Source: a virus. Taken from it: 35,556 nucleotides of DNA. Below are positions 11,037 to 35,556 of this stretch, in pieces. The notes beneath the pieces were generated by a model that worked only from the letters and a program-made list of their open reading frames with translations, searched no databases and had not been told where the DNA came from. The position numbers and the translations under genes were made by a program. How positions within the stretch are numbered: the first letter of the stretch is position 1; each line of letters begins with the position of its first letter. The stretch is from positions 1 to 35,556 of IMG/VR virus record IMGVR_UViG_3300031972_001313; one strand, written 5' to 3'.

Positions 11037-11789
11037 ATGACTAAAATTACAGTGAATAAAAGCGAGTTCCTCTCGTTCCTTTCTGTCTTCACGAAAGGTG
11101 TACCCGACCTACGGTTGGATTGCGCTGGTTCTCGTGTAACGGTTGAGGTTGCTTACGCATCGTTTTACTTGCGAAAGTATTTCCTTTCCGTACAGGTGAT
11201 AGAAGAAGGGGCTATCCACATCGCTGACCTTGAGAAAGCACTCAAGTTCATGAAAGCGACAAAGGAGGATAATGTAACACTGCGGCAAGTGGACACGCAC
11301 AAGCCACTCCACATTGAAGCAGGTGGTAACAAGTTGCAACTACCGAGTACGAATGATATTGAGTCAGCAATCAAGGCCGTTGTAATTCGTTCACTGTTAA
11401 AGAAGTGTCAAGAAGGTGGGTGGGCTAAGTTTGGTAACTCCAACTTGTCCACCCACTCATCACTGATGACAAAGGATTTGATTTCATTTGCCAACATGCG
11501 TGGCATACTGGCGAAGGACACGGACTTCAAGTTGCGTATTCACTGCGGTGAAGAAGAGGTAGGTATTGTAGCAGGTAAGGCGGCGAGTGGTCGTTTGTTT
11601 ACCACACTCCCTGTATGGGACACTGATGGCCCTGCTACTACTGTTGACTCTATGTTCTCCGATGCCCTACCTACCTGCCTCAACTATCTCGATGACGGTG
11701 AGGCTCGTATGCACATGGGTAGAGGAACGATAGTAATTTTTGAACAAGTAACCACGCTTCTCATGGTCGTAGATGTAGGTGATGACTGA
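11037..11789 (+). CDS. PCNA-like sliding clamp
   Basis: A 250-residue protein of the right length for a PCNA monomer (about 245-260). It has a repeated beta-alpha-beta layout: residues 1-110 and about 125-250 form two similar halves. The C-terminal part (GRLFTTLPV, then MFSDALPTCLNYLDDGEARMHMG and IVIFEQVTTLLMVV) fits the end of a clamp domain. Overall similarity is weak, so the call leans on size, pattern and position between a clamp loader and PolB. As a trimeric ring it would tether the polymerase. ATG at 11037 follows GAGGTGAT. The structured element at 10904-11028 lies immediately upstream and could affect its expression. Confidence 0.6.
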   Translation: MTKITVNKSEFLSFLSVFTKGVPDLRLDCAGSRVTVEVAYASFYLRKYFLSVQVIEEGAIHIADLEKALKFMKATKEDNVTLRQVDTHKPLHIEAGGNKLQLPSTNDIESAIKAVVIRSLLKKCQEGGWAKFGNSNLSTHSSLMTKDLISFANMRGILAKDTDFKLRIHCGEEEVGIVAGKAASGRLFTTLPVWDTDGPATTVDSMFSDALPTCLNYLDDGEARMHMGRGTIVIFEQVTTLLMVVDVGDD

Positions 11790-12040
11790 TGAATAAACCT
11801 ACATTAAACGACAGCGTTATTGGAGGCGATTTTCATAACGGAGATGTCATCAATAATTATTACATCAATAAGGATAAACTAATACCAAACAAAGTAAAGA
11901 AGAAGCGACCCAAAAGAAAAGGGACATGGGGGAAGTTGTATCTCTTAGGAGTATTAGATTTTGTGAAAGTATTACTTCTTTCCTTTGTAGTTTTAAGTGG
12001 AACTTTTCTTTTACTATTATTAGTGGGTGTGAGTATATGA
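11789..12040 (+). CDS. Small C-terminally anchored membrane protein with DSVIGGD motif
   Basis: An 83-residue protein in three parts: a polar N-terminus with DSVIGGDFHNGDVINNYYIN (residues 8-27), a pattern resembling one turn of a bactofilin or beta-helix-like repeat; a strongly basic linker (KVKKKRPKRKGTWGK); and one hydrophobic helix (about residues 51-81) ending at the C-terminus. The positive residues before the helix predict a cytoplasmic N-terminus. It overlaps PCNA-like and PolB genes (TGATG and ATGA), an odd place for a membrane protein. It might tether replication complexes to the membrane or act in lysis or exclusion; none is shown. Confidence 0.6.
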   Translation: MNKPTLNDSVIGGDFHNGDVINNYYINKDKLIPNKVKKKRPKRKGTWGKLYLLGVLDFVKVLLLSFVVLSGTFLLLLLVGVSI

Positions 12041-14430
12041 TTATTGATTGGTTCACTGATGACCCGTATGACCCACCTACCATCTACGAGCGTACTCGTG
12101 GGGCTGATGGAGTATTGCATGAGCGATACATCATGAAGGGTGATGACGATTATGTTGAGCCTTTCTTTTGGGTAGCCGAAGAAGCACCTCAATATGTAAT
12201 GAATCGCATTAGAGGACACAGGGGAACTATTCATCCGAACATCAAGGCGACCGGACTCGACGGTAAAACAATAGTGAAAGTAACTGTACAGCACCCCAAT
12301 ACTCTATGGGAACTCAAAGAGAAGTGTGGTGTATGGACATATGAGGCTGACCTCAATTACCTCGACCAAATACTACTCACCAACTATCCCGATAAGTTGC
12401 CGGAGTTCAAACCTCGGATATGGTACTTTGACCTTGAGTGGGACACCGAAGACCAAACGACAACGGTGATGGCTGTGTCCGATACATTCAGCGACCACCC
12501 TGTAGTGTTCGCTTGGAGTGAGGATTCAGTAAGAGATACTATACGCAAGACAGAATGGATAGACCGCTACGAAGGTTATGAGTTGCGTACCTATCCGAAT
12601 GCACATGAGATGCATGATGGTTTCCTGTCTTACCTTGAAGAGTGTAACCCCGATATGTTGGTGGCTCACGCTATTGCTTGGGCTGACTTACCACATCTCT
12701 ACAGTCAATTGGGTGTAGAGCGTGAGCGTTTGTCTCCTGTCCGTAGAGTGATTGCACCAAACAAAAAGACTGGTTCATACCGCACCACTGCTCAACCTAT
12801 CAAGGGGCGACTGATATTCGATACTGCGGCGCAGTGGACTGATGGGAGTGGCTTTGAAGGTATATGGCAGAAGTCCGGTAAAGGTCAAGCACAGTCTCGC
12901 AAGTTGGATTGGTTCGCTACTGAACTTGGTTTCAGTGGTAAATTAACAAACGACATTGAAGGTATGACCGTCTTCAATGGATGGAGAGAATACTATGACG
13001 ATTTCGTTGACTATTGTTTAGTTGACACTACATTACTGCGTGACTGTGATGAGAAGTTGAATTGTATATCCTATCACATAGCCATGCAACAATTGGCGGG
13101 TGTCTCATTCGGTAGCACACATAAGGTCACTCGATACTTCCGAGGGTTGATTGGTCGGCGCACTGACCTCAAAGCACCCTCTTCTTACATTCAAGAACGC
13201 CCCGAACTACAGGCGGCGTGGGTTATGCCTCCGGTAGCAGGGCGACATGAAAATGTAGCACTGGTTGACTTCGCATCACTCTATCCAAACATCATACTCT
13301 CCGCCAACCTATGTTGGACTACGATTGCAGACGGGCCGGGGGAGAATATTCTCACACTGAAAGTTCCTCCTAAGTATGATGACAAGGGTAACATGATACC
13401 CCTCACAGGTGGTACATTCCACTGGCATCAAGACAAAGAGGGCATACTACCTTCTGTCGTCAAACAAATGCTCGCTCTCCGTAAGGAGTACAAACGCCTC
13501 ATGCGTGAGGCTGATGACGCTGACATACGCCTTGGTTACAACATGTTACAGATGGCGGTCAAGGTTGCTGTCAATGCCATATATGGTATGACTGGTACTA
13601 AGAAAATTGGTGGACAATGGAGTAGTTACCCAATTGCACAGTGTATCACTTACCTCGGTAGAGAGTCTATCAGTATGCTTGTTAAGAAGAGTGAAGAGAT
13701 GGGCTACCGAGGACTTGCAGGACACACCGATTCGTGTTACATTCAAGTTCCATTCGATGAAGCCGAAGAAGTTGCAGGTGAGTTGACTCGCATTGCTCAA
13801 GAAGAAATGGATTTGAAGTATCTCGATGTAGAACTTGAAGCCTTTTTCCCTTACTGGTTCACTGCCGGTATCAAGAATCGAAACTTCGGTATCAAGTCAT
13901 ACCCTCCCGAAGACAAGGGTGAGATGAAGGTGACAGGCTTTGCTATGAAGGCGGCTAATGCACCACCTTTGAGTAAGCGTGTACAGCGTGAGGCATTCAC
14001 ACTCATATGCAATGGGGCTGATGAAGGTGATTTGTTTGATAACATCCGACCAATGGTGAAGGCTGTCTATGGTGGTGGCGCACTGGATGATGTATCAGCA
14101 TACGGGCGCATTCAAAAGCACTTAGATGACTACAACCCATCACACACACCGAACACAGCGAAGGCGGCGCAATACTCAAACAAATACAATAACACTGATT
14201 TTAATAAAGGTGATAGCGTTAAGTGGGTATTCATAAACGGTGTACCGGAGGGTCAACCTCAAACCAATGTGATAGCATACGATGAGGTAAGTGAACTGGA
14301 TGAGTATGATATAGACTGGACTACATGCGTTGACAAATGGATAGCAAAAAAACTCAAGGTCGTGTATGAAACACTCGACTGGGACTTAGAACGACTCACT
14401 GCGAAGCGGGTCTTAAAACAATACTGGTGA
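12037..14430 (+). CDS. Family B DNA polymerase
   Basis: A 797-residue polymerase. Exonuclease part: Exo I FDLEWD (D132, E134), Exo II AHAIAWADLP (D217, but the usual Asn five residues before is Ala), Exo III YCLVD (Y326, D330). Polymerase part: motif A DFASLYPNI (D411), motif B KVAVNAIYG (K509, N513, Y516, G517), motif C AGHTDS (H563-T564-D565), where the usual first Asp of DTD is His. The key metal Asp (D565) is kept, so activity is expected. The last eight residues (KRVLKQYW) resemble a PCNA-interacting motif. ATG at 12037 overlaps the membrane-protein stop by 4 nt and follows GGGTGTGAG; an in-frame upstream ATG at 11926 lies inside that gene and is rejected. No intein. Confidence 0.95.
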   Translation: MIIDWFTDDPYDPPTIYERTRGADGVLHERYIMKGDDDYVEPFFWVAEEAPQYVMNRIRGHRGTIHPNIKATGLDGKTIVKVTVQHPNTLWELKEKCGVWTYEADLNYLDQILLTNYPDKLPEFKPRIWYFDLEWDTEDQTTTVMAVSDTFSDHPVVFAWSEDSVRDTIRKTEWIDRYEGYELRTYPNAHEMHDGFLSYLEECNPDMLVAHAIAWADLPHLYSQLGVERERLSPVRRVIAPNKKTGSYRTTAQPIKGRLIFDTAAQWTDGSGFEGIWQKSGKGQAQSRKLDWFATELGFSGKLTNDIEGMTVFNGWREYYDDFVDYCLVDTTLLRDCDEKLNCISYHIAMQQLAGVSFGSTHKVTRYFRGLIGRRTDLKAPSSYIQERPELQAAWVMPPVAGRHENVALVDFASLYPNIILSANLCWTTIADGPGENILTLKVPPKYDDKGNMIPLTGGTFHWHQDKEGILPSVVKQMLALRKEYKRLMREADDADIRLGYNMLQMAVKVAVNAIYGMTGTKKIGGQWSSYPIAQCITYLGRESISMLVKKSEEMGYRGLAGHTDSCYIQVPFDEAEEVAGELTRIAQEEMDLKYLDVELEAFFPYWFTAGIKNRNFGIKSYPPEDKGEMKVTGFAMKAANAPPLSKRVQREAFTLICNGADEGDLFDNIRPMVKAVYGGGALDDVSAYGRIQKHLDDYNPSHTPNTAKAAQYSNKYNNTDFNKGDSVKWVFINGVPEGQPQTNVIAYDEVSELDEYDIDWTTCVDKWIAKKLKVVYETLDWDLERLTAKRVLKQYW

Positions 14431-14434
14431 TAAT

Positions 14435-15886
14435 ATGGTAAGAAAAATAATACAAATGGAAAGCAATAACGAACTGATGGCTAATACTATGTCTAAGAGT
14501 GGATTTACATTCACTTCGGCGTTACATGAATTAGTGGACAACGCTATAGTGACAGCGAATAATATTTCAATCAATTTATTGGTTGAGAATCATGGACAAA
14601 GAAGCATCAAAAAAATATCAGTTGTGGATGATGGTGACGGTATTTCACTCTCCGAAGCGGCTGTTGCTTTGAGTGTCGGTGCGAGAACCAATCAAGGTAT
14701 TCATGAGCATGGAGTAGGTATGAAAAGTGCTATCGCTTACTTTGGTGATACAGATATTTCACAAGGACTTGACATTATACGCTCATATGACGGAGTGGAC
14801 TCTTATGCAATAACCGGGTATCAAGGTAACAACCTTCACATTGATGATAGTTTACCTATCCCTACCACTACCGGAACGAAAATAGTAATGAATGTATTAC
14901 TAAATGTATTTGCGGCGAAGCGGGTCAATAACCTAAGAGATTCTTTGGGTATTCGTTATGCTAATTTTATTAACGATGGTGGAGTTATAGTGATTAACGA
15001 GGTAAACTTGGAAAACAATGAAATCATTCAAGACGCAAAAGGAAAGCCCACTACAGTAACAGTAAAAGCGATATTCCCACCATACTTTCATCCTACTACG
15101 CTGACTAATGTACACTTACTCAAAACTGATATAACAACTCAAAACATAGTTGCTGAACTCACCATAGGTATGAGTCCCGAAGAACATGAGGGTGTATGGG
15201 CGAGGCAAAGTTATGGCGGTGGTATTGATGTTGTACAAAATAGCCGAGTGATAATGCATCGTGTATATGAACCAATGACAGTTTGGAGAGCAAAGAATCA
15301 CACCTCTCTCAATGGTCTTGTAGGACAATTGGTAATAAAAGAAGGGCATTTGGCTACGACACCAAAGAAAGACAACATACAACAAACTGATGAATGGTAT
15401 GAATTAAAAAAGAGTATATCCGAGGCAATTAAAGAAGCAAAAATTACATCATTCTTTAATCCACCCGAAAATGATGATGATTACGATAGTCTTAGCGAGT
15501 CGCTTATTCGTGACGGACTCGCTGACTACCTCAAAGCGCAGGTATTACCAAACGGTGATGCCATTTGGTGTGATGTTAAGACAGAAGAATCAACAGATAC
15601 CAACCTTAGTATGGATGTCACCGCTAATAGTGGTGATTCTTTTTATGTTTTTGAAGTTAAGAAAGGAAACTTCAATGCTCAAGACATGAATCAACTCGTA
15701 GGGTACATGGTTACAGTAGGTGCTACTCATGGTGTAGTCTTTGCCAAGAATGTGCTGGCTAATGCTAAGAAACAATTCGATGAACATTGGCAACCTTTAC
15801 TTGGTGACTTTAATATCCAATACTGGGAGGAATCAAGCGCACAACACAAAACTGTATTGACAACTTATGTTGATGTGGGGAATTGA
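14435..15886 (+). CDS. MORC-like GHKL ATPase fused to a PD-(D/E)XK nuclease-like domain
   Basis: A 483-residue protein. GHKL ATPase motifs: N-box HELVDNA (E32, N36), G1 DDGDGI (D66, G67, G69), G2 HEHGVGMKSA (91-100), G3 TTTGTKI (144-150). The next section with YGGGIDVVQNSRVIMHR (260-276) and a Lys (K301 or K311) fits a MORC/MutL-type S5 transducer. The C-terminal ~130 residues carry SMDVT (D394) and VFEVKKG (E407, K409), a PD-(D/E)XK core. GHKL proteins dimerise on ATP and clamp DNA, so an ATP-gated nuclease is the simplest reading. Codon use is more A/T-rich than in PolB next door. ATG follows GGTGATAAT 4 nt after the PolB stop. Role unknown: host-genome attack, counter-defence or DNA processing are options. 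Confidence 0.75.
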   Translation: MVRKIIQMESNNELMANTMSKSGFTFTSALHELVDNAIVTANNISINLLVENHGQRSIKKISVVDDGDGISLSEAAVALSVGARTNQGIHEHGVGMKSAIAYFGDTDISQGLDIIRSYDGVDSYAITGYQGNNLHIDDSLPIPTTTGTKIVMNVLLNVFAAKRVNNLRDSLGIRYANFINDGGVIVINEVNLENNEIIQDAKGKPTTVTVKAIFPPYFHPTTLTNVHLLKTDITTQNIVAELTIGMSPEEHEGVWARQSYGGGIDVVQNSRVIMHRVYEPMTVWRAKNHTSLNGLVGQLVIKEGHLATTPKKDNIQQTDEWYELKKSISEAIKEAKITSFFNPPENDDDYDSLSESLIRDGLADYLKAQVLPNGDAIWCDVKTEESTDTNLSMDVTANSGDSFYVFEVKKGNFNAQDMNQLVGYMVTVGATHGVVFAKNVLANAKKQFDEHWQPLLGDFNIQYWEESSAQHKTVLTTYVDVGN

Positions 15887-15887
15887 A

Positions 15888-16076
15888 ATGAGTAGAATCG
15901 AAGACGAAGTATGCAAGAAAATTGCACAGCGAGCAGAAGTAGGAAAGAGTAAGTACGGGGTTACAATGGAAACCGCACCACTCTCTCGTCTTGAATGGCT
16001 TGTTCATGCTCAAGAAGAAGCGATGGACTTGGCCGTGTACCTACAGAAACTAATTGAAATGGAGATGAAAGAATGA
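15888..16076 (+). CDS. Short MazG-like protein
   Basis: A 62-residue helical protein with RAEVGKSKYGVT and LEWLVHAQEEAMDLAVYLQKL. The E..EEAMDL.VYL segment matches the metal-binding helix pattern (ExxE/ExxD) of all-alpha NTP pyrophosphatases (MazG type), and the 'KYGVT...LEW..HA.EE.MDLA.YL' string is common in small phage proteins. It could hydrolyse a nucleoside triphosphate (dNTP or ppGpp-like pools), or be a non-catalytic short relative. ATG at 15888 starts 1 nt after the upstream stop. The -EMEMKE tail codons give a GGAGATGAAAGA site for the next gene. Confidence 0.6.
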   Translation: MSRIEDEVCKKIAQRAEVGKSKYGVTMETAPLSRLEWLVHAQEEAMDLAVYLQKLIEMEMKE

Positions 16077-17095
16077 GATGGAATCCTACTGGTGATGATA
16101 GTCGCCCACGCATTGACGATTACCTTGAGGCTACCGGCAACCAATTGGAGGCTGACTCGTACAAGAGTAGCACCTACGCTTGGAATCCGAATGAGGATGA
16201 AAGTAAAATCCTACGAGTTACCAAGTCAAGTTACGGCACATTCGGCTGGTGTCCACAGCAATACTACATTGAGAAGTTCTTAGGTATGCGTGGAGAGACA
16301 GTGGACCACCACATACGGGGGCTAAATGTTCACGACATGATGGAGTGGTTTTGGGAAAACTTCACCGACGAACAAGAAAAATCAGTGTTAAAGTTAATTG
16401 ATGAAGGTGATTTACTTGAGGCTGAAAAGTTGTTCAACAGTGCTATACCATCCCCTCCCGAACCATATGAGTTCGGTGAGGATGAACAAATAGCACAGTG
16501 GATGAAATGGCAATTCAACCGCTTGGTTATCACCAACGGCAATCAGTGGCGACCTGTCGCTATTGAAGCAAACATACAGGCCACACGCTTCGTTGAAGTA
16601 GATGGTGTACACATTCCTATTCACATGAACGGTTTTATTGACGGACTGTTCGCTGACGATGATGGCTTCGCTCTCATGGAGTTGAAGACTGGTAAGTACA
16701 ATAAGAGCAAACCCGGCTCTATGCGTAAAGAAATGCAGTTTTACAAAATGATGCTTGAACACAGCCCCCATCACGAGTTCCTCCCTATCACCCATTGGGG
16801 ATGGGAGTTCCCCGGCGGTGGTATTAACGGTGGCGACGGGCCTACAGTATTCTATGAAGACACCAAGAAAGGTGGTAAGTACTCATCCAAGAGTATAGAG
16901 AAAGGATTAGTGCGCCTACTTGAAGCACACATAAACATGGAGTTTCCACCCACACCGTATTTGGGTAGGCTGGTAGAAGGTTTACCTTTAGAGGAACAAA
17001 AACTGAAATGCAACTGGTGTAGTTACAAAGCCCATTGCGAGTTTTGGGATATGGACACATATTTGGATAATACGAATGAAGAAAAAAATAAATGA
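16073..17095 (+). CDS. Cas4-like PD-(D/E)XK nuclease with Fe-S cysteines
   Basis: A 340-residue protein. Cys60 (FGWCPQQYYIEKFLG) with C313, C316 and C322 near the C-terminus (CNWCSYKAHC) gives the four-cysteine Fe-S arrangement of Cas4/AddB-type nucleases. The catalytic core has H87 (GLNVHD), D190 (GFIDG), E203 and K205 (MELKTG) and Q222 with Y224 in the following helix. The family cuts or resects DNA ends with 5'-3' or 3'-5' exonuclease action. No Cas1/Cas2 or CRISPR array is nearby, so a replication, recombination or end-processing role fits better than adaptation. It overlaps both neighbours by 4 nt. Confidence 0.82.
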   Translation: MRWNPTGDDSRPRIDDYLEATGNQLEADSYKSSTYAWNPNEDESKILRVTKSSYGTFGWCPQQYYIEKFLGMRGETVDHHIRGLNVHDMMEWFWENFTDEQEKSVLKLIDEGDLLEAEKLFNSAIPSPPEPYEFGEDEQIAQWMKWQFNRLVITNGNQWRPVAIEANIQATRFVEVDGVHIPIHMNGFIDGLFADDDGFALMELKTGKYNKSKPGSMRKEMQFYKMMLEHSPHHEFLPITHWGWEFPGGGINGGDGPTVFYEDTKKGGKYSSKSIEKGLVRLLEAHINMEFPPTPYLGRLVEGLPLEEQKLKCNWCSYKAHCEFWDMDTYLDNTNEEKNK

Positions 17096-26262: not shown

Positions 26263-26597
26263 CAGCAGTTCCACCGTTTAAGAGAAGCCCCTTTCGGTGT
26301 TAATTTACCTTTCTTACTCGTTGCGCCTTTCATACCACTCATACGAGCGCAGAATGATTTACGACGCTTGGCCTTCTTTGAGCCGGGCTTGAGTTTACTT
26401 GGCTTAGTTGTCACCGGGGGTTTGAGATTTGCGCCACTCTTACGCTTGGCGGCGGCACGACCCTTAGCGTTCAGTCCACCCTTTGGACTGTGCTTGTTTG
26501 GATTGTAACCGTGAAATGGTTTTTCCTTCTTAGCCTTCATTAAGGCGAATGCATTTTCCATTGGTGTACAACAATTACAAAAGTCGTATTCAATCAT
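26262..26597 (-). CDS. Basic DUF6321-like protein
   Basis: A 111-residue, very basic protein. Residues 38-111 run HSPKGGLNAKGRAAAKRKSG, NLKPP, then RRKSFCARMSGMKG, KGKLTPKG and SLKRWNC. This is the signature of the DUF6321 family known from marine phages (GGLNAKGR, SFCARM-GM, KRWNC at the C-terminus). Function is unknown to me; charge and context suggest DNA binding inside the virion or packaging. The N-terminus adds CNCC (residues 7-10). ATG at 26597 follows GGTGATGG and overlaps the giant gene's stop (ATGA). Confidence 0.75.
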   Translation of the reverse strand: MIEYDFCNCCTPMENAFALMKAKKEKPFHGYNPNKHSPKGGLNAKGRAAAKRKSGANLKPPVTTKPSKLKPGSKKAKRRKSFCARMSGMKGATSKKGKLTPKGASLKRWNC

Positions 26598-29500
26598 GCG
26601 CCATCACCACTGTGGTCTGTTGAGTTGTAGGAGACATCCCCTTTATGTCCTTTTGGATGTAAGGCTTGACTGAACCGTGGTTGTACACTGTAATCCTTAC
26701 GAACAACTGTCTCATCGTTTTCTACAGATGTACGGCGGCGTGATGCGTCGGAACGGTAATGTTCCAAAGTATTTTCACTGATAATTACACGAGTAACTTC
26801 ATTGTCAATTTTACTGCTGTCAAAGCCGCTGTCAGCCGTTCCGATAATTTTTGGACCTTTACTTATCGGTCGGGTATCACTGTTTACAATTGACATAGAA
26901 TACGCAGGTGCGTAAGGAGGGTTTGTATTCGGGCCACTACGCATGTAAGTAGTTTCACCGTCTGTTGCTCTATGGTTTTCTACATTGTAAATATACAAAC
27001 CATACTTGCCACCAGCGGTAGCACCGAAGTAATTACTACCGTTTTGCGGGCTTGATGCGTGTAAGTTGAGATTTGAGCGGAACATCTCTATGTGTTGTTT
27101 GTCCATCAATCGAACTGGCCGCATCATGTATGTAATGGATTTATCAATAACATTTGTTCTTTTACCAGCAGGAGAGAATGTAACTGTAGTGTATGGGTTA
27201 CTACTGAAACCGGCAGGTGCAGTGAAACTTAGTGTGACTCCATCACCGGGACTGTCGGCTGTTGCATTTGTTTCAATTGCTATAGTTGTTGCGTTTGTTA
27301 TTTCACTGATAGCGACATCATCGGGAATACCTGTACCAACTACTTTCATACCCACTACCAATTTAGCAGTAGATTCCATAGTGATATTAGAAGAACCATT
27401 TGCTGTTACGCATATAGCGGTAAATCCACCCCAATTGGTATCATCAATAGGTGAAAGGAAGTTGCGGGTTTCAGCGAGGTAAGTACCACCAAGTGGGTTG
27501 AAGTTTGATGTATGACTCATACGCACCGCACCACCTTGAGGTTGCCCTCCAAAGTCGAGTGCAGTAAGGTCGTAGTTACCTATTGTTTGAGAGCCAGTTT
27601 GCATACCACCTTGTAATATAACACGCTGTCCTACATTACGGTCAGTGTGTAGGCTGTGTGCTTCGGTGTTGATGATGATTTGATTGGTGTCAACACCTTG
27701 TAGGTTTTCGGTGTCAAGACCGATACGAGGGCTACTGCGGCTTACTGCATCCTTATGCGGCGAGTCACCAATTATGTTCTCCATGCGGTCACTTACTACT
27801 GCTTCGGGCTTGAGTAGTCCGTCTTCTGCAATTTCTAAGCGTGAACTGATACCACGAGGCACTTCTGTGTTTTGTAGTACATCGTTTCTTGCACGAATGA
27901 AACCATCGTTGAGTATAGGCTCGGCGGTGTGATGAGAGAGGACAAGCCCTGTTGTATGAATAGGCTCACTCAATGCGGTGAGTACATCCTCGTTGAACTG
28001 TGTTGGGTATCGAATACCCCGACCGTTACCCATGTCACCTACACGCTGTGCGTTTGATGGCATGAATACATCAACCAAAGTGTTCGTATCATTATTATTA
28101 GTGTTGTTTAAGCGACCGCCGAATCTCGGTAGTGTTGCCGAAATACTCAATGCTGTATCAGCCGCATTAGTAAGTCCCTTCAAATTGACAAGGTGGTTGC
28201 CATTGTTGTGTATTCGTTGATACGGTGTGCGGTTGTTTCGTCGGTCGTATTCGTATGCGTCACCTGCATCCCATGATGGGCGAATACCGAATGAACGGAC
28301 AGGGAAGCGGCGAACATCCTCACCACGAGTATTACCCCACCAATCAACAATGTAATACTTAGCGGCATCCTCAATCGAATCTAAGCCTTTACCGTTACCG
28401 TCACCCCACCAGTCACGCAATACAGTAGAACTGTTGCGTAGGGTGCGAATAGGGCAACCGAATGGGCGGGTAAAGCGAACACCGTCACTGTATCGAACCT
28501 GCCACTCCGGTTTGTCAACACCAAGCATACCGGAGAAGTTGGTTTGGCGTTCCATAATACCAGTGTAGGTGTTCGGGAAAGTGGAGGTTGAACTACCGTC
28601 ACCACCAGCGTATGTCGAAGTTTGAGTTTCTGTTTGTACCAATGGACCGTGGGTGTAACCTACACTGGCGTTGGTGGCTGTTACTGCTGTCTCTCGCAAT
28701 GCTCGCAATCCATACATAGACCACTGCGGCTTGTTGTATGGTTGGCGTAGGCCAAAGCGATAACCGAATGGTCGTGGGCGTGTTGGGTTACTGATACCAT
28801 CGTATGATGATTTACTGATACCACTACTTACAGCATAAGAACCATCATCGTCAGCATCCGACCAAATAGGACCATCAAAGCCGTAGTCTCGTGGATAGTC
28901 CCATGTAGATGAGACATAAGCGTAACCATCAAGGCGGCTCACCAGTGGTCCACCACGGCTACCACTCGGCCAAAAGTGGTTGAGCATACTCTTTGTGGCT
29001 GTATCACTGCTGTCCGACTGTCCACCTTGCATAAGCCCTGTGCCAATGGTGGTATCAATGGTTTGAGCAGTTTGAGGTGTTCCATCAGCACCAGTATAAA
29101 TGACCGAGCCTGTTGTTATCTCCGAAGCCAATGTATCATACACTACAATAGAAGTACCTCCTTCGGCAACCCCACTTGCATTTACTTGATACATACGACC
29201 CTCAACAATAATGTATGAGTCAGCGGCTATTGCTTCACCGCCGTTTGTTGTAATGGTTGTACTATTGGTTCGCTCTACAACTTGACGAGTATGTGAACCA
29301 TCAGCGGCAAGGTCAGCGGTCTTGTAATAGCGCAGTGAATGATTACCACTCGCCATAGTTGTCAATGGTGTACCCTTGACATTAACACACCCTGTCAATG
29401 TAGTACCACCAGCACCACCACCGGTATAGGTGAATATTTCTTCTTCACTACCACTGTTGACATATACTGTATTTGTACCACTTGTAGGCCATCCAGCCAT

Positions 29501-32500
29501 GATAGTACCTGTAGCAGTAACAGTTGTACTACTCACACTCGCTGATGTAGCGGTGTAGTATGTTGATTGCGCTTCGGTAGGCGGCATGGCTGTCTTCATT
29601 CGCAAAGCAAACGGCCCCATACTGGCATAGTAGGTAGCATCATGGTAGTGAACAGTTTCAAAGTGTTCCGGCATACTGTTGAGTGGTTTTTGGTTGATGG
29701 CTCGGTCAGTCAATGGATTCAACCATGTTCGACTTGCATCACTGTAGAAAGTATGTGGGCGACCAAGGTTTGGATGCCACAGACAAAGGAAAGCATCAGC
29801 CATGTGTAGGCTGTTGGTATCACGACTACCTGCTAAAGTTTGAGATAAGGTTTGATTGATAATACTTGTTTCACTGTCACTTAAAATTGTATTCGCTGGT
29901 CGGAAATCATACGCTCGACTTAAGCGAATCTTTGTTCCAGCGGTTAAATTATCTGTGAAAGTAGAATTGGCTACTATAGTAAATTGCTTAGGCTTATTCA
30001 TCAATGATGAATCATAACCACTGCGTTCAGTGTAAGTATGTGTTCTTCGTGTGCCTGTGGTATCGGTGTATTCAAGCACCATACCATAGTAAGGTTGCTT
30101 AGGGAATCCTCGTGCATCATCTACTGTAATAACTGTGGATGCTACACTCACTACAGTACATACAGGTGTGAGACTGATGTTCTCAAGTATCTCGGAGTAT
30201 AAGTCGGGATAGAAACTTGGGTAGCCAGCAAGCGTGATTTGAGAAGCAATCGAGCCGCTACTTGCTCTCAAGAACTCATAGTAGTTGTCAAGACGATGCC
30301 AAGACAAATGATTGAAACGGTCAGCATCAGCGTTATCCGGGCCAACCTTGTGAACAATAGACCACCACGGTATATTGGTAGTAAATCCGGGCGTAGCATC
30401 TACGAACATACTTGGGTAATACGGTAGAGAGCGACGAACAAAGGCTGGTGATTCTGTGGCTTGAACACCAAGCGGGTTGTATAACATCAGTGGCGGGATA
30501 TTGGTAAAGTGGCTACCGTGGTCGGGGTCATGGTCTATCATCAATTCATTGACAAATATTTCACAGCCTCTTACATCAGCCATAGTAGCATTAGCCAGTA
30601 CAAGTGCATAAGCACCATACCTGCTGTCGGGTTCACGAATACCTACAACCAGTGCGACTTGTTGGCTTGTTAATTCACTTACACTACCATTAGGAACATC
30701 ATTAGCAGGACCATTTGCATGATAACCGATAAATTGCGAACTATGCATATTTGGTTGTATAATGATTTGATACGCACCAACCTCGGCAGGGTCGGGGAAA
30801 TGTTCTTTCAGTGTGTAAGTACCTGCGGCTTCAAGAACAATAGTGTGTCCACCCTTTGAGTTTGTTACACCTGCATCACCTTCGGATGCCAGTACACCGT
30901 AACCGTCGTTACGCAACTTAGTTTCAAACATCAGTGAGAATCCACCACCGTGTATGTCACTTGGGCCGCTTGGTGTAGCGGTTAATGAACCAAAGACCAA
31001 CAACGGGTCATAGGTAGGGAATGAAGTAGGTACACTTGTAATTAAATCATCCATACCGTAAGAGTCACCGATGATAGTAAACTCATCCGATTGTAAAGTA
31101 GCCGAGCGACAGGCTCGGTGTTTGTCGTATAATCCTTGGTAGGCAGGGTGCGCCCAGTGTCCGGGTAGCATAGCCATTGTAGCGTTGACAAAGTGATGAC
31201 CCATACGGGGAATAGGTGCAGGTGTCAATTGCGGCTTTTTGTATATTGAATAACCAGTCATGGCTTCTTCGGTTGTTACCGAGTAATTGACATAATGAGT
31301 ATGTGCCATGTCGGGGCTGTTACCGCTTACTTCGGCATGGTCCCGAATACGGCGTGAACCATAGAATCGAGTACTACCGGCAGGAATGTAATACGATGGG
31401 ACTACTTTCAGTGTTGTAATACTACTAAGAACGAGTTTGTTAAATGTTTCATCGCCTACGCAACCAGTGAATGTAGAACCGCTAATACCAGTAAAGGATG
31501 CCACGCCACCTTCATCGGTGGTAGGATTGTACAAGCGAAGGAATCTACGCTCTCCGACTCGTTCTTTACTACCAAATGTAGAATCATAGACAGCGGAGTT
31601 TACACTCGTATTCACTGTTAAAGTAGTACCGACAAAAGACACACCTGTAAGTTCGTGATTAACAACACCACCGCTGTGTGAATAAATGACAGGATGCTTG
31701 TGAGTGTTGGTATTACCCATTTTTGTTACATGGAAAAACAAGGTACGGTCGTGTAATTCGTATGCTGTTTCAAGGGGTGCGTTTCCAGTGGAACTTTGCC
31801 AGCCCGACATTGTACTTTCGGGGTTATCAGTGCCTTGTTTGAGGTGTTCCCAATTATGGTCGCTGTAAGTAGGGCCAAGGTTTGGACTCACCAAACTGTT
31901 ATCGAACATATGTTCTACAGTAGATTTAGTCATCATACCACCTGTACCCATTGTTTCAGTTTGATAGGCTTGGAGTCTATCGAAGCCGGAGCGAACAATC
32001 AAGTTACCCGGTATAGAATCGGGGTCGGGTAAGCGTATTTTCATGTTCGGTTCAACACCGCTACCGGAGATTGCAGGGGCTAATCCTTGCGCTGAACGGT
32101 TGGATAGTTGAGTAAACGCTCGTATGATTGTCCCAAACGGTGAGCCACCCTCTACTGTATGTTCTTGCCCTGTATCATCTACTACTGTAATACTTTCAAA
32201 CTGAATCTCTTCATTTGGTATTTCAAGAATGTTACGCAACAAATCGGGGTGGCGAGATGCCATCTGTGGGTGCGATAACTCTTGGGCTTGGATTATAGGG
32301 AACATCGCACTGTTGGTTGATTCAAAGGTAAATCGGTTGTTGCCATACAATTTTTCACCAGTGGTGTAAGCGTTACCACCTGCTACACGAGTAACAAACG
32401 GTACAGCACCCAATCCTCGTGCGTTTGGTGCAGGGAGGCTAAGGTTGCCACCATCCATTCGCTTCCAAACTACATGTTCAATGCTAAAGTTTTGAGCAGG

Positions 32501-35500
32501 GGTACGCTGTGATAACTTGTAACCGTTGGTGTCACCAAGCCAAAAGTCCGGTGAGGCATCGCCGCTACCATCTCTTTCGATGTAATCATAATTATCAATT
32601 TCAGTATCAGTGCTATCCAATGTTAATTCTTTTGTAATATTACGAGTAACATCAGTAGTAACTTCAAGTAAAATTGAGCCGGGGCTAATATCAGTGTCAA
32701 AGAATAAATCACCTGTAACAGCAAAACAAGGTTCTGCGTTGTAGAGATTTGCGTCTTGGTCGCCAGTTAATGCGGTGTGTAATACATAAGCCGCAGACGG
32801 AACATCAGCAGTAGGTGTTGCTGTTCCTGTAGCAATCAAGGCTTCTACATTCGGACCAGCATTAGCAGGTGCTATGTATCGTTCAGCATTATGGAATCGT
32901 TCATCCCATCGTGTTGTGCCAGCAAAAGTGATAGCAGTAGCGGCGGCTACACCGGCACGAGTTTTTGATACTACGGAAAGCCAATCACCGGTTGCTGTTA
33001 TACCGTCACGGTCGGTCTTGGCTACAAGTGCCAACTCACTTTCATTACTGATAACAAGCATTGCTCGACTGAATACACCCTGTTGATGGTGAAGTTTAGG
33101 GTTTAGAATAAACGATGTATCGGTTTCTGTTTCCCGAATATGTAATGGTTTTTCGATAATTTGCTGATTATCACCTCCATCTTCTGTTCCCGCCATGATA
33201 AACTTGTCATACCAAGTATCTCCACCAACTAAACCTATATTCCATGTGTAAGGCGTAGTAAGCCCGCCATCATATTGAGGTTTTACATTACTGGTTGAAG
33301 TCATTTGAGCGTTTATTCTTGAACTACCTTCGGGGCTGTTATACATAGGGTTCACACTTGGTAGATGACCTAATACACTCATACACGAGGCTGATGAACC
33401 ATATGGGGTAAAACCCATTTTAGGATGCCAAGCACCCCTTCCGGCGGCGTAAAGGTTGGTGGTAAAGGTGAGTGTACCATTTGTTACCGAACCTCCGGTA
33501 GTAGAAACTGACAACTCAAACTCAACGCTACTGGTTATACTACGAACATAAGCACTCGTAGGAATACCTGTTCCACTTACCAACATACCAATTTTTAGTT
33601 TTGCAGTAGAATCTATTCCAATTGTAGGGTCATTATTATAATCACAGGTGGCATCAGTAAATGAGGTGGTATCTACCTTAAGGGAGTTAAGGTAGGAATA
33701 ACGCTCTCCCGCCCATCCTACAGCCCCTACAGGGCGTGTACGGTCAATAGCATCCACCAACCCACCAAAGTGCGCTTGAGTCATGTGGTTACGAGGTGTT
33801 TCATTTTCGTTGTTAAAACGGTGAACACCGGCTTTGGACCAAACATATATTTTGGTTGGAGAGGTATGTACGGTAGCACCAAGTCCGGGGTCGAAACCCG
33901 GAGTGGGGAATGTAAGAGTAGCACTTTCACATTTATTATGCCAAGTAGTGTGGTCTTCTAAAAGCGGTAATCCGCTTATTTTATTTGGTGCAAGGTAAAA
34001 CTTGATTTTGTATGTACCACTATCATTCCATATTTCTCGGCTATGATAGCATCCAAAAATACCGTAAATACTTTTTAGAGTATTAGTTGATTGTGTGTAA
34101 CTTCGACCACCCTTTTCACCTCTTATCCAACCACACGCTGGTATCTGTTCTAATTCTTCTTGCGTAGCACCTGTAATAGTTGCTACAACATGCACTTCGG
34201 AATTATCAACATCTCCGGTTGTATCATCAAATGCTTCACCACTGAATACTTTACCAAGTAAATCATCAGCGAGGTTATTGTATGATACAAAATTAGTTTC
34301 AATCCAACCGTATCGGTCTTGACGCATGGCGTTACCCATAGACGGTAGGAATGTCCCACCCATTGCTTTAAGCGCACCTTTACCGGGATTTTCGTTAATT
34401 GCTTGGCCGATGATAGTCGCTAATTCTTCACCGTTTTGACAGCGTGTGCCATCTACAATAATATAATCACTGTCAAAGTTAAGTGTTGTTTCGTTGTTTG
34501 CACCTTCAAGAATTGTTTTAGCCATAGCACCCGAAACACGGAATGCTGTGGCATTAACTTGATTCCATGATTCCAAAGCATAACGATAGTTACTGTTGGG
34601 GTTTGGTGCGTTAAAGGATATTTGATTATCGAGCCATGAACCACCGGGATGATAACCACCATCCATGTGAAATGTCATGTCTGCACTCATAGCAATACCG
34701 TAGTATGCAACAGCACTATGTTTGTACGGGTGGGCTTTTCTGTAATCCACTTTATTACTACTGGTAAGTTTACTCGCTACAGGATTAACAAACATTTCAC
34801 CAAAATGAGAACCATGTTCCGGTCGTTGTTGTAAGTAACCTACATTGGGAATACCTTGCGGTGGCGACCAGTTAAGAGTGGTGCGCCAATGGAAACGCTG
34901 TCTTGCGGCTTGATATGTACTATTTTGTGGGCCGTACAAATTATCACTGTTGGTAATTTCGTTTGGTAGATACATACTGTGAGGAACTTTACTCCAAGTG
35001 TTACCAGCAGTGACAACATATCCGGGGTGTGGTTCGACAGCCGCATTAGAGTTGTCGTCTTCGGTGAATGGGAATGCTTGACCCGGCCCATAGACAAGGT
35101 AAGTGGTTTTATTTTCAATGTAATTAAATGTTAAAGTAGTGTTGGTATTACTTGCTGTTGCGGCGGCACTTAATACAAATGTAGTAGCGTTGGTAATGGA
35201 TGCTACAGTAGCCCCATCGAGAATACCTGTACCGGTGACTGTCATTCCTACAACAAGTTGCGCTGTCGAATCCATAGTGACAGTGGTGTTGCTGTTTGTG
35301 TCACAGGTTGCATCAACAATAGGTTGGCTGTCGTGGTAGCGGGCAGTAGGATGAGCAAAGCGAAGCACCAACGGTACAGGCTGTTGGCGAACAATACCTG
35401 CGGCGTATCTCGCTCGTAAATCACCAGTAGCACCACCAGCACCGTCACCATCAGCCGCCGCATTCAGTAAAGCGAAGTCGGCATCCAAGTTACCGCCCCG

Positions 35501-35556
35501 TAGGTCGGGTGATAGAATGCTGTCTTTGTTCGACACTGGGCTGTTGATTGACCCTC
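26594..35556 (-). CDS. Giant virion structural/adhesin-like protein, 5' end outside the window
   Basis: An open frame of at least 2,986 codons. A GTG at 35536 could start it (2,980 residues), but the frame stays open to the window edge with sensible residues (INSP) and there is no ribosome-binding site, so the gene probably continues. Composition is Thr/Ser/Asn/Gly/Tyr-rich with many short beta strands and few long helices, unlike a tape measure. It contains at least three copies of a ~65-residue module with a VGMxVxGTGI core, and strand-turn units ending in TGC (for example 'TLTGC'). I read it as a large tail-fibre or surface protein used for host binding. One third of the window; no frameshift seen. 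Confidence 0.75.
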   Translation of the reverse strand, partial: GSINSPVSNKDSILSPDLRGGNLDADFALLNAAADGDGAGGATGDLRARYAAGIVRQQPVPLVLRFAHPTARYHDSQPIVDATCDTNSNTTVTMDSTAQLVVGMTVTGTGILDGATVASITNATTFVLSAAATASNTNTTLTFNYIENKTTYLVYGPGQAFPFTEDDNSNAAVEPHPGYVVTAGNTWSKVPHSMYLPNEITNSDNLYGPQNSTYQAARQRFHWRTTLNWSPPQGIPNVGYLQQRPEHGSHFGEMFVNPVASKLTSSNKVDYRKAHPYKHSAVAYYGIAMSADMTFHMDGGYHPGGSWLDNQISFNAPNPNSNYRYALESWNQVNATAFRVSGAMAKTILEGANNETTLNFDSDYIIVDGTRCQNGEELATIIGQAINENPGKGALKAMGGTFLPSMGNAMRQDRYGWIETNFVSYNNLADDLLGKVFSGEAFDDTTGDVDNSEVHVVATITGATQEELEQIPACGWIRGEKGGRSYTQSTNTLKSIYGIFGCYHSREIWNDSGTYKIKFYLAPNKISGLPLLEDHTTWHNKCESATLTFPTPGFDPGLGATVHTSPTKIYVWSKAGVHRFNNENETPRNHMTQAHFGGLVDAIDRTRPVGAVGWAGERYSYLNSLKVDTTSFTDATCDYNNDPTIGIDSTAKLKIGMLVSGTGIPTSAYVRSITSSVEFELSVSTTGGSVTNGTLTFTTNLYAAGRGAWHPKMGFTPYGSSASCMSVLGHLPSVNPMYNSPEGSSRINAQMTSTSNVKPQYDGGLTTPYTWNIGLVGGDTWYDKFIMAGTEDGGDNQQIIEKPLHIRETETDTSFILNPKLHHQQGVFSRAMLVISNESELALVAKTDRDGITATGDWLSVVSKTRAGVAAATAITFAGTTRWDERFHNAERYIAPANAGPNVEALIATGTATPTADVPSAAYVLHTALTGDQDANLYNAEPCFAVTGDLFFDTDISPGSILLEVTTDVTRNITKELTLDSTDTEIDNYDYIERDGSGDASPDFWLGDTNGYKLSQRTPAQNFSIEHVVWKRMDGGNLSLPAPNARGLGAVPFVTRVAGGNAYTTGEKLYGNNRFTFESTNSAMFPIIQAQELSHPQMASRHPDLLRNILEIPNEEIQFESITVVDDTGQEHTVEGGSPFGTIIRAFTQLSNRSAQGLAPAISGSGVEPNMKIRLPDPDSIPGNLIVRSGFDRLQAYQTETMGTGGMMTKSTVEHMFDNSLVSPNLGPTYSDHNWEHLKQGTDNPESTMSGWQSSTGNAPLETAYELHDRTLFFHVTKMGNTNTHKHPVIYSHSGGVVNHELTGVSFVGTTLTVNTSVNSAVYDSTFGSKERVGERRFLRLYNPTTDEGGVASFTGISGSTFTGCVGDETFNKLVLSSITTLKVVPSYYIPAGSTRFYGSRRIRDHAEVSGNSPDMAHTHYVNYSVTTEEAMTGYSIYKKPQLTPAPIPRMGHHFVNATMAMLPGHWAHPAYQGLYDKHRACRSATLQSDEFTIIGDSYGMDDLITSVPTSFPTYDPLLVFGSLTATPSGPSDIHGGGFSLMFETKLRNDGYGVLASEGDAGVTNSKGGHTIVLEAAGTYTLKEHFPDPAEVGAYQIIIQPNMHSSQFIGYHANGPANDVPNGSVSELTSQQVALVVGIREPDSRYGAYALVLANATMADVRGCEIFVNELMIDHDPDHGSHFTNIPPLMLYNPLGVQATESPAFVRRSLPYYPSMFVDATPGFTTNIPWWSIVHKVGPDNADADRFNHLSWHRLDNYYEFLRASSGSIASQITLAGYPSFYPDLYSEILENISLTPVCTVVSVASTVITVDDARGFPKQPYYGMVLEYTDTTGTRRTHTYTERSGYDSSLMNKPKQFTIVANSTFTDNLTAGTKIRLSRAYDFRPANTILSDSETSIINQTLSQTLAGSRDTNSLHMADAFLCLWHPNLGRPHTFYSDASRTWLNPLTDRAINQKPLNSMPEHFETVHYHDATYYASMGPFALRMKTAMPPTEAQSTYYTATSASVSSTTVTATGTIMAGWPTSGTNTVYVNSGSEEEIFTYTGGGAGGTTLTGCVNVKGTPLTTMASGNHSLRYYKTADLAADGSHTRQVVERTNSTTITTNGGEAIAADSYIIVEGRMYQVNASGVAEGGTSIVVYDTLASEITTGSVIYTGADGTPQTAQTIDTTIGTGLMQGGQSDSSDTATKSMLNHFWPSGSRGGPLVSRLDGYAYVSSTWDYPRDYGFDGPIWSDADDDGSYAVSSGISKSSYDGISNPTRPRPFGYRFGLRQPYNKPQWSMYGLRALRETAVTATNASVGYTHGPLVQTETQTSTYAGGDGSSTSTFPNTYTGIMERQTNFSGMLGVDKPEWQVRYSDGVRFTRPFGCPIRTLRNSSTVLRDWWGDGNGKGLDSIEDAAKYYIVDWWGNTRGEDVRRFPVRSFGIRPSWDAGDAYEYDRRNNRTPYQRIHNNGNHLVNLKGLTNAADTALSISATLPRFGGRLNNTNNNDTNTLVDVFMPSNAQRVGDMGNGRGIRYPTQFNEDVLTALSEPIHTTGLVLSHHTAEPILNDGFIRARNDVLQNTEVPRGISSRLEIAEDGLLKPEAVVSDRMENIIGDSPHKDAVSRSSPRIGLDTENLQGVDTNQIIINTEAHSLHTDRNVGQRVILQGGMQTGSQTIGNYDLTALDFGGQPQGGAVRMSHTSNFNPLGGTYLAETRNFLSPIDDTNWGGFTAICVTANGSSNITMESTAKLVVGMKVVGTGIPDDVAISEITNATTIAIETNATADSPGDGVTLSFTAPAGFSSNPYTTVTFSPAGKRTNVIDKSITYMMRPVRLMDKQHIEMFRSNLNLHASSPQNGSNYFGATAGGKYGLYIYNVENHRATDGETTYMRSGPNTNPPYAPAYSMSIVNSDTRPISKGPKIIGTADSGFDSSKIDNEVTRVIISENTLEHYRSDASRRRTSVENDETVVRKDYSVQPRFSQALHPKGHKGDVSYNSTDHSGDGA
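27216..27420 (-). repeat. VGMxVxGTGIP protein module, copy C
   Basis: Encodes ITMESTAKLVVGMKVVGTGI followed by P, then SEITNATTIAIE and LSFTAP. Same layout as the copies near 33.5 and 35.2 kb. Immunoglobulin-like or small beta-sandwich modules of this type are common in phage structural proteins. Confidence 0.65.
33460..33656 (-). repeat. VGMxVxGTGIP protein module, copy B
   Basis: Encodes DATCDYNNDPTIGIDSTAKL, then KIGMLVSGTGIP, RSITSSVEFELS and GTLTFTT. Shares the DATCD start with copy A. Confidence 0.7.
35123..35314 (-). repeat. VGMxVxGTGIP protein module, copy A
   Basis: Encodes DATCDTNSNTTVTMDSTAQL, then VVGMTVTGTGI, ASITNATTFVLS and TTLTF. Closest to copy B at both protein and DNA level. 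Confidence 0.7.

What the first reader, a model, noticed from the sequence alone, without database searches (positions are those of the whole stretch)
14435..15886. Virus-encoded MORC-like GHKL ATPase joined to a PD-(D/E)XK nuclease-like domain
All four GHKL motifs are readable (HELVDNA, DDGDGI, HEHGVGMKSA, TTTGTKI), followed by an S5-like section and, at the C-terminus, D394...E407-V-K409 in a PD-(D/E)XK layout. Bacterial MORC/MutL-like ATPases are known next to restriction and other conflict genes. Finding one fused to a nuclease core inside the replication block of an archaeal virus suggests an ATP-clamped DNA cutter used against the host or rival genomes, or for processing viral concatemers. 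Codon use is more A/T-rich than in PolB next to it, consistent with later gain. This is my best candidate for an undescribed system in the window.
Basis: partly seen in the sequence, partly recalled or inferred. Interest (0 to 1): 0.75.

Follow-up and report, generated by a model that had tools for sequence, protein, structure and literature searches.

The report
Virus-borne ATPase–nuclease swapped between viruses
A virus of marine archaea (by its gene content) carries a one-protein DNA cutter, an ATP-driven clamp of the MORC type joined to a nuclease, that near-identical sister viruses lack and that was taken from another virus, so it looks like a portable weapon resembling a known bacterial anti-phage protein rather than part of the copying machinery.

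Summary
The ORF at 14435-15886 is real. It has all four GHKL motifs, an S5/transducer section and a C-terminal PD-(D/E)XK domain. D394, E407, K409 and Q420 are identical in all 29 aligned homologues, down to about 20% identity, and Y424 in 28 of them. With a 29-sequence alignment the model is usable (pLDDT 79.5): residues 9-345 match MORC2/3/4 best. The C-terminal profile matches archaeal NucS/EndoMS (E = 3e-8). So the fusion is confirmed, but the architecture is not undescribed: Iyer et al. 2008 reported it as paraMORC3, and VcSduA (GHKL Shedu type I-D) is a tested anti-phage protein of the same layout. The viral domain does not match the Shedu profile SduA_C, so I do not file it as Shedu.

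New here is the evolution. Sister viruses with 99% identical PolB lack the gene, with a clean PolB-to-ORF69 junction. The window's copy is sister to that of a virus whose core genes are only 60-77% identical, and the core-gene tree rejects that pairing (p-AU 6e-6). Relatives carry methyltransferases, HNH or CoiA-like genes nearby. Best explanation: an ATP-gated DNA nuclease used in conflict with rival DNA, dispensable for replication. Target and self-protection are unknown. Interest 0.5.

The parts
14435..15883 (+). GHKL(MORC-type) ATPase - S5/transducer - PD-(D/E)XK nuclease fusion protein, 483 aa (stop 15884-15886)
14459..15469 (+). ATPase part, residues 9-345: GHKL motifs E32/D35/N36, D65-G67-G69, E91-H92-G93-G95-K97, TGT 146-148; S5 motif GIDVVQNSRVI 263-273; T308, K312 (candidate catalytic lysine of the transducer)
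15470..15883 (+). PD-(D/E)XK nuclease domain, residues 346-483: E355, D394, E407-x-K409, Q420-xxx-Y424; NucS/EndoMS-like
14428..14434 (+). 5' junction: PolB stop codon and short spacer; in L131/L132 PolB runs straight into ORF69 here (empty site)
15867..16076 (+). ORF69, small conserved ORF on the 3' side; start overlaps the end of the nuclease gene; its divergence pattern suggests it travelled with the cassette
12040..14430 (+). PolB, upstream flank of the insertion site (context, not part of the system)
16073..17095 (+). PDDEXK_1 (Cas4/RecB-like) core nuclease, downstream flank (context)

Best explanation
The protein is an ATP-gated DNA endonuclease: a MORC-type GHKL-S5 module that by analogy dimerises on ATP binding and clamps DNA, with a C-terminal NucS/EndoMS-like PD-(D/E)XK domain that cuts it. 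In this virus it is an accessory conflict gene. It was gained by horizontal exchange from another, related virus at a fixed site behind PolB, and most likely serves to cut rival or foreign DNA (a competing virus or plasmid, less likely the host chromosome) in the infected cell, in the manner of the bacterial anti-phage protein VcSduA. Shown here: domains, invariant catalytic residues, common ancestry of the nuclease-bearing family, presence/absence in near-identical viruses, horizontal transfer. Inferred: dimerisation, ATP gating, DNA cutting, the target, and how the virus spares its own DNA.
For: Catalytic residues of both domains are invariant in 29 sequences. Best solved matches for residues 9-345 are MORC2/3/4 and SMCHD1, Z 21-22. 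C-terminal profile hits NucS 3.3e-8, EndoMS 6.2e-6, Cas4 0.002. A tree from the ATPase part alone separates nuclease-bearing proteins plus the viral clade from plain MORCs (98/99). Sister viruses L131/L132 (PolB 99%) and five other relatives lack the gene. The GHKL tree pairs window with L002 (100/98), and the core-gene tree rejects that pair (p-AU 5.8e-6). GC3 is low. The nearby variable slots hold N6_N4 and C5 methyltransferases, HNH and CoiA-like genes in relatives. A bacterial relative sits beside dcm, SNF2-related and restriction genes. A same-layout protein, VcSduA, protects against phages, and ATPase (E27A) and nuclease (K557A) mutants lose protection (PMC12137116).
Against: No activity has been shown for this family. 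Most bacterial and archaeal relatives are standalone genes without a defence-like neighbourhood. VcSduA-like proteins are only distantly related: a GHKL-Shedu protein matched the family profile only in the GHKL core, so transfer of function is by analogy. The other carrier viruses all keep the gene at the same place, which could also fit a maintained replication or repair role in that clade.
Confidence: 0.55

Rival explanations
1. It is a DNA repair/recombination factor of the virus: a MutL-like ATPase clamp driving an EndoMS-like cut at mismatches or replication intermediates, working with the neighbouring PolB and PCNA.
For: The nuclease domain is closest to the archaeal mismatch endonuclease NucS/EndoMS. 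The gene lies between PolB and other replication/repair genes, and a whole clade of these viruses keeps it.
Against: Near-identical viruses lack it with no visible replacement gene at the site. Bacterial relatives are patchy and lie beside unrelated genes, unlike repair genes. Its C-terminal tail (HKTVLTTYVDVGN) shows no PCNA-binding motif on inspection.
Confidence: 0.2
2. It degrades the host chromosome (host takeover or nucleotide supply), with viral DNA spared by modification or replication compartment.
For: Lytic viruses often carry host-degrading nucleases (general knowledge); the gene lies in the same-strand gene block that holds the replication genes.
Against: Accessory and recently swapped. 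No N6_N4 or C5 methyltransferase was found in the window virus or the 51-kb near-identical record that would mark its own DNA. An ATP-gated MORC clamp is not typical of such nucleases.
Confidence: 0.12
3. It is a selfish, homing-like gene: at co-infection it cuts gene-less genomes near the PolB-ORF69 junction and is copied in by repair.
For: Occupied and empty versions of one site in otherwise 92-100% identical gene blocks; exchange between distant viruses at the same site. Sites beside phage polymerase genes are classic homing spots (general knowledge).
Against: No homing enzyme with a GHKL ATPase is known to me. Against L131, raised divergence at the flanks is confined to ORF69 (0.35 synonymous against about 0.12 in the adjoining genes); no broad co-conversion tract is visible in PolB. 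Ordinary recombination at a hot spot explains the same pattern.
Confidence: 0.08

Closest known systems
paraMORC3 (Iyer, Abhiman, Aravind 2008, PMC2292703)
   Same: Single protein with GHKL + S5 + C-terminal RecB-family RE-fold nuclease carrying E-D-ExK; often standalone. The viral protein has E355-D394-E407xK409.
   Different: The 2008 paper gives paraMORCs as lacking the MORC S5 motif, which this protein has (GIDVVQNSRVI). No archaeal virus was described in the parts read. Identity of its sequence family with ours could not be checked.
VcSduA, GHKL Shedu type I-D (Nat Microbiol 2025, PMC12137116)
   Same: Same layout: N-terminal GHKL ATPase with motifs I-IV, C-terminal PD-(D/E)XK; single gene. 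Anti-phage activity needs both active sites.
   Different: Its nuclease is DUF4263/SduA_C, which the viral protein does not match. The GHKL-SduA_C protein L160 aligns with our family only in the GHKL core. VcSduA is longer (K557 against K409) and bacterial.
Prokaryotic and eukaryotic MORC ATPases
   Same: GHKL-S5 fold (Z about 22 to MORC2/3/4) and the MORC S5 motif GhXhhpXXRhl.
   Different: MORCs found here lack the nuclease signature, and the ATPase tree separates them from the nuclease-bearing family.
NucS/EndoMS (2vld, 5gke)
   Same: Nuclease domain with D, ExK and QxxxY in the same order.
   Different: EndoMS has its own N-terminal domain, not a GHKL ATPase.
T4-type RIIA and other phage GHKL proteins
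   Same: Viral GHKL-type proteins found by fold search.
   Different: Fold-level similarity only (about 11-15% identity). A nuclease domain is not a feature these hits are known for (general knowledge, not checked).

Membership tests
GHKL-S5-PD-(D/E)XK family (the 'group b' of this report) | GHKL motifs, S5 G...R, T308/K312, and E-D-ExK-QxxxY at the C-terminus | tested here: met
   All present; 15 columns invariant in 29 rows; near full-length match to the Priestia plasmid protein, 393 columns, hhalign E 8.6e-18
MORC (Iyer 2008) | S5 motif GhXhhpXXRhl | tested here: met
   G263-IDVVQNS-R271-VI fits every position
MORC (Iyer 2008) | Groups with other MORCs by phylogeny of the ATPase part | tested here: not met
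   32 MORC rows form one side of a 98/99 branch; viral clade lies with the nuclease-bearing proteins
MORC (Iyer 2008) | Operon with SFII helicase, methylase or restriction nuclease | tested here: not met
   Window neighbours are PolB, ORF69, Cas4-like nuclease, primase-like ORF, ERCC4 nuclease; a C5 methyltransferase and HNH lie nearby only in L004-L006
paraMORC3 | GHKL + S5 + C-terminal RecB-like nuclease with E-D-ExK | tested here: met
paraMORC3 | Lacks the MORC-specific S5 motif | tested here: not met
   Motif present in the viral protein
paraMORC3 | Sequence relationship to the proteins named paraMORC3 in 2008 | not testable with these tools
   Accessions are not in the text read
Shedu type I-D (VcSduA) | C-terminal SduA_C / DUF4263 (PF14082) | tested here: not met
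   No match at E <= 10 in the window or relatives; not among the families matched by 25 C-terminal domains at E <= 0.1
Shedu type I-D (VcSduA) | N-terminal GHKL ATPase domain | tested here: met
   only the GHKL core aligns with L160
Shedu type I-D (VcSduA) | Anti-phage activity needing both active sites | not testable with these tools
   Needs an experiment
NucS/EndoMS | C-terminal PD-(D/E)XK of the NucS type | tested here: met
   2vld 3.3e-8, 5gke 6.2e-6
NucS/EndoMS | NucS N-terminal domain | tested here: not met
   N-terminus is GHKL
MutL | MutL model over its curated cut-off | tested here: not met
   22 bits against a cut-off of 180, residues 27-79 only
MZA system MzaB | MzaB model over its curated cut-off | tested here: not met
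   18 bits against a cut-off of 850

The most novel reading that the evidence does not exclude
The gene is a virus-against-virus weapon that spreads between archaeal viruses at one fixed site: an ATP-clamped nuclease that attacks genomes lacking it at co-infection, either excluding rivals or copying itself into them. It would be a GHKL-driven kind of interviral exclusion or homing not yet described.
Probability: 0.2. Interest if true: 0.8.

Novelty: new variant of a known kind. Interest (0 to 1): 0.5.

Why it matters
A defence-type ATPase-nuclease carried and traded by archaeal viruses would show that such cutters also serve viruses competing with each other. The occupied and empty sites in near-identical genomes make the idea directly testable. 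It also adds a MORC-type family with a NucS-like nuclease next to the known GHKL-Shedu type, useful for working out how ATP clamping controls cutting.

Tried and rejected
(1) AlphaFold2 with 11 close homologues gave a poor model (pLDDT 45) and was not used. (2) Homologues were not found in phage records or by the first genome scan; a mixed alignment (A4) then found 71 genome loci and further viral contigs. (3) Direct comparison of the nuclease domain with the window's own Cas4-like nuclease gave no useful match. (4) I expected bacterial relatives in defence islands; a tally of 77 neighbours plus ten read singly shows mostly unrelated genes, so context supports conflict only in some cases. (5) Shedu membership tested and not met; the one GHKL-SduA_C protein found is a distant relative. 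(7) Whether hosts (Poseidoniales) carry the gene was not tested; a search of 295 genomes in the phylum of the one archaeal hit found only that hit. (8) Philosof et al. 2017 and Gu et al. 2025 are not in the held library.

Full report
The ORF and its motifs are as described. Window 14435-15886 (+) is a complete 483-aa ORF. HATPase_c_3 matches residues 25-103 (E 1.8e-8, above its cut-off). Sequence searches with the single protein gave only weak hints for the C-terminus (Cas_Cas4, E 0.3).

Close relatives. Thirteen viral contigs encode it at 64-100% identity, always directly behind PolB. The window is itself a virus record of 35,556 bases. Its gene set (PCNA-like ORF, clamp loader, PolB, PDDEXK_1 nuclease, primase-like ORF, ERCC4 nuclease, Cpn60 on one strand; the PCNA and primase names rest on my reading and position, no Pfam hit) resembles that given for magroviruses of Poseidoniales; this assignment is inference.

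Distant relatives. A plasmid protein of Priestia megaterium aligns over 393 columns (hhalign E 8.6e-18), and a mixed alignment found 71 genome loci and several more viral contigs. They fall into two main kinds: proteins with the MORC S5 motif (such as GFALFRRGRVI) and no nuclease signature, and about 500-aa proteins with a C-terminal ExK...QxxxY. The viral protein belongs to the second kind. In 29 aligned rows E32, D35, D65, G69, E91, H92, G93, G95, K97, T308, K312, D394, E407, K409 and Q420 are invariant; N36, T148, G263, R271, W284, E355 and Y424 nearly so. A tree of the ATPase part only puts all 32 MORC rows on one side of a 98/99 branch and all nuclease-bearing rows with the viral clade on the other, so the nuclease fusion follows the ATPase phylogeny.

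Structure. With the 29-row alignment AlphaFold2 gives pLDDT 79.5, pTM 0.67. Among chains re-aligned by VIA, residues 9-345 match MORC2, MORC3, MORC4 and SMCHD1 best (Z 21-22), just above Hsp90 and GyrB (Z 19-20). The C-terminal elements H355-368, E377-382, E392-399, E402-408, H415-428, E432-436, H442-456, E460-464 follow the PD-(D/E)XK order, with D394 and E407 on successive strands, K409 just after the second, and Q420/Y424 on the following helix. The C-terminal profile finds NucS (3.3e-8), EndoMS (6.2e-6) and Cas4 (0.002) among solved structures. The full-length fold search did not test this domain by itself.

Gain by exchange. Viruses L131 and L132 share 99% of PolB and 92-100% of other neighbours with the window but lack the gene; PolB runs into ORF69 with ...TGGTGATAAAATGAGC.... 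L133-L137 also lack it; profile searches of the whole records found nothing, though the records may be fragments. The distant L135 and L137 have the same direct junction, so absence is probably ancestral. Against L002 the window's copy is 94% identical while PolB, Cas4-like, primase, ERCC4, ORF469 and Cpn60 are 60-77%; synonymous differences are also lower (0.56 against 0.72-0.89 for these genes; 0.68 for ORF201), and ORF69 shares the pattern (93.5%, 0.46). The GHKL tree pairs window and L002 at 100/98; a tree of PolB, ORF469 and primase rejects that pair (p-AU 5.8e-6) and puts the window with the gene-less viruses. GC3 is 0.317 against 0.37-0.52 in the neighbours. The gene is thus an accessory, horizontally acquired insert.

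The variable slots around it. In L131 the PCNA-PolB slot holds an N6_N4 methyltransferase (5.8e-37). L004-L006 carry a C5 methyltransferase (1.4e-44) just downstream of the GHKL gene, and L004 an HNH endonuclease there as well; L003 a CoiA_N protein (8.8e-11); L134 a 179-aa ORF with a TNPPYS motif. This is the company expected of conflict genes. No methyltransferase of those two families was found in the window or the near-identical 51-kb record.

What is known. Iyer et al. 2008 described paraMORC3: GHKL and S5 with a RecB-like E-D-ExK nuclease, partly standalone, and proposed roles in restriction systems. In 2025 VcSduA, a GHKL protein with a C-terminal PD-(D/E)XK domain, was shown to restrict phages, with E27A and K557A inactive; the authors link it to paraMORC3 and Shedu type I-D (PMC12137116). 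The viral protein works, in all likelihood, like these, but it fails the Shedu domain test, and a GHKL-SduA_C protein matches our family only in the GHKL core. It also carries the MORC S5 motif that paraMORCs are said to lack. I therefore call it a GHKL-S5-NucS-like nuclease, a new variant of the known kind.

Mechanism. Shown: domains, invariant active sites, purifying selection, exchange. Inferred from the families: ATP binding closes a dimer of GHKL domains around DNA, the S5 part with K312 and R271 signals the state, and paired nuclease domains cut. Inferred from distribution and neighbours: the target is foreign DNA. Unknown: the trigger and how own DNA is spared; sensing of DNA ends or structure is one possibility, since no modification gene was found. 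A repair role is the main rival because the nuclease is NucS-like and the gene sits among replication genes, but absence in near-identical viruses speaks against an essential part.

Noticed in passing
window 11789-12040; L131:4074-4790: The slot between PCNA and PolB holds an 83-aa ORF (MNKPTLNDSV...NNYYIN..., C-terminal hydrophobic stretch) in the window and an N6_N4 methyltransferase beginning MNKPTLN in the 99% identical sister virus: another recent swap next to PolB.
   Followed up: partly
L004:10430-12014: HNH endonuclease and C5 cytosine methyltransferase inserted between ORF69 and the Cas4-like gene, just downstream of the GHKL-nuclease gene.
   Followed up: partly
L008:10739-11698; L009:12358-13296: Proteins with repeated Cys-rich motifs (NinG-like in L008, HNH-like by eye) between the primase-like ORF and ERCC4 in some relatives: a further variable slot.
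   Followed up: no
window 26594-35554 (-): A single ORF of about 2,980 aa running off the window end; no Pfam match at E <= 0.01.
   Followed up: no
window 15867-16076: ORF69 is conserved at this spot in all relatives but has no Pfam match; by eye it resembles MazG-type phage nucleotide hydrolase fragments. In L133 it is fused in frame to an HTH-containing extension.
   Followed up: no
L104:5992-6390 and following: Copy of the GHKL-nuclease split into two frames in a 195-kb viral contig, a decayed gene or a sequencing error.
   Followed up: no
L121:3654-5243: A true MORC (GFALFRRKRLI, no nuclease signature) on a viral contig, a virus-borne plain MORC.
   Followed up: no
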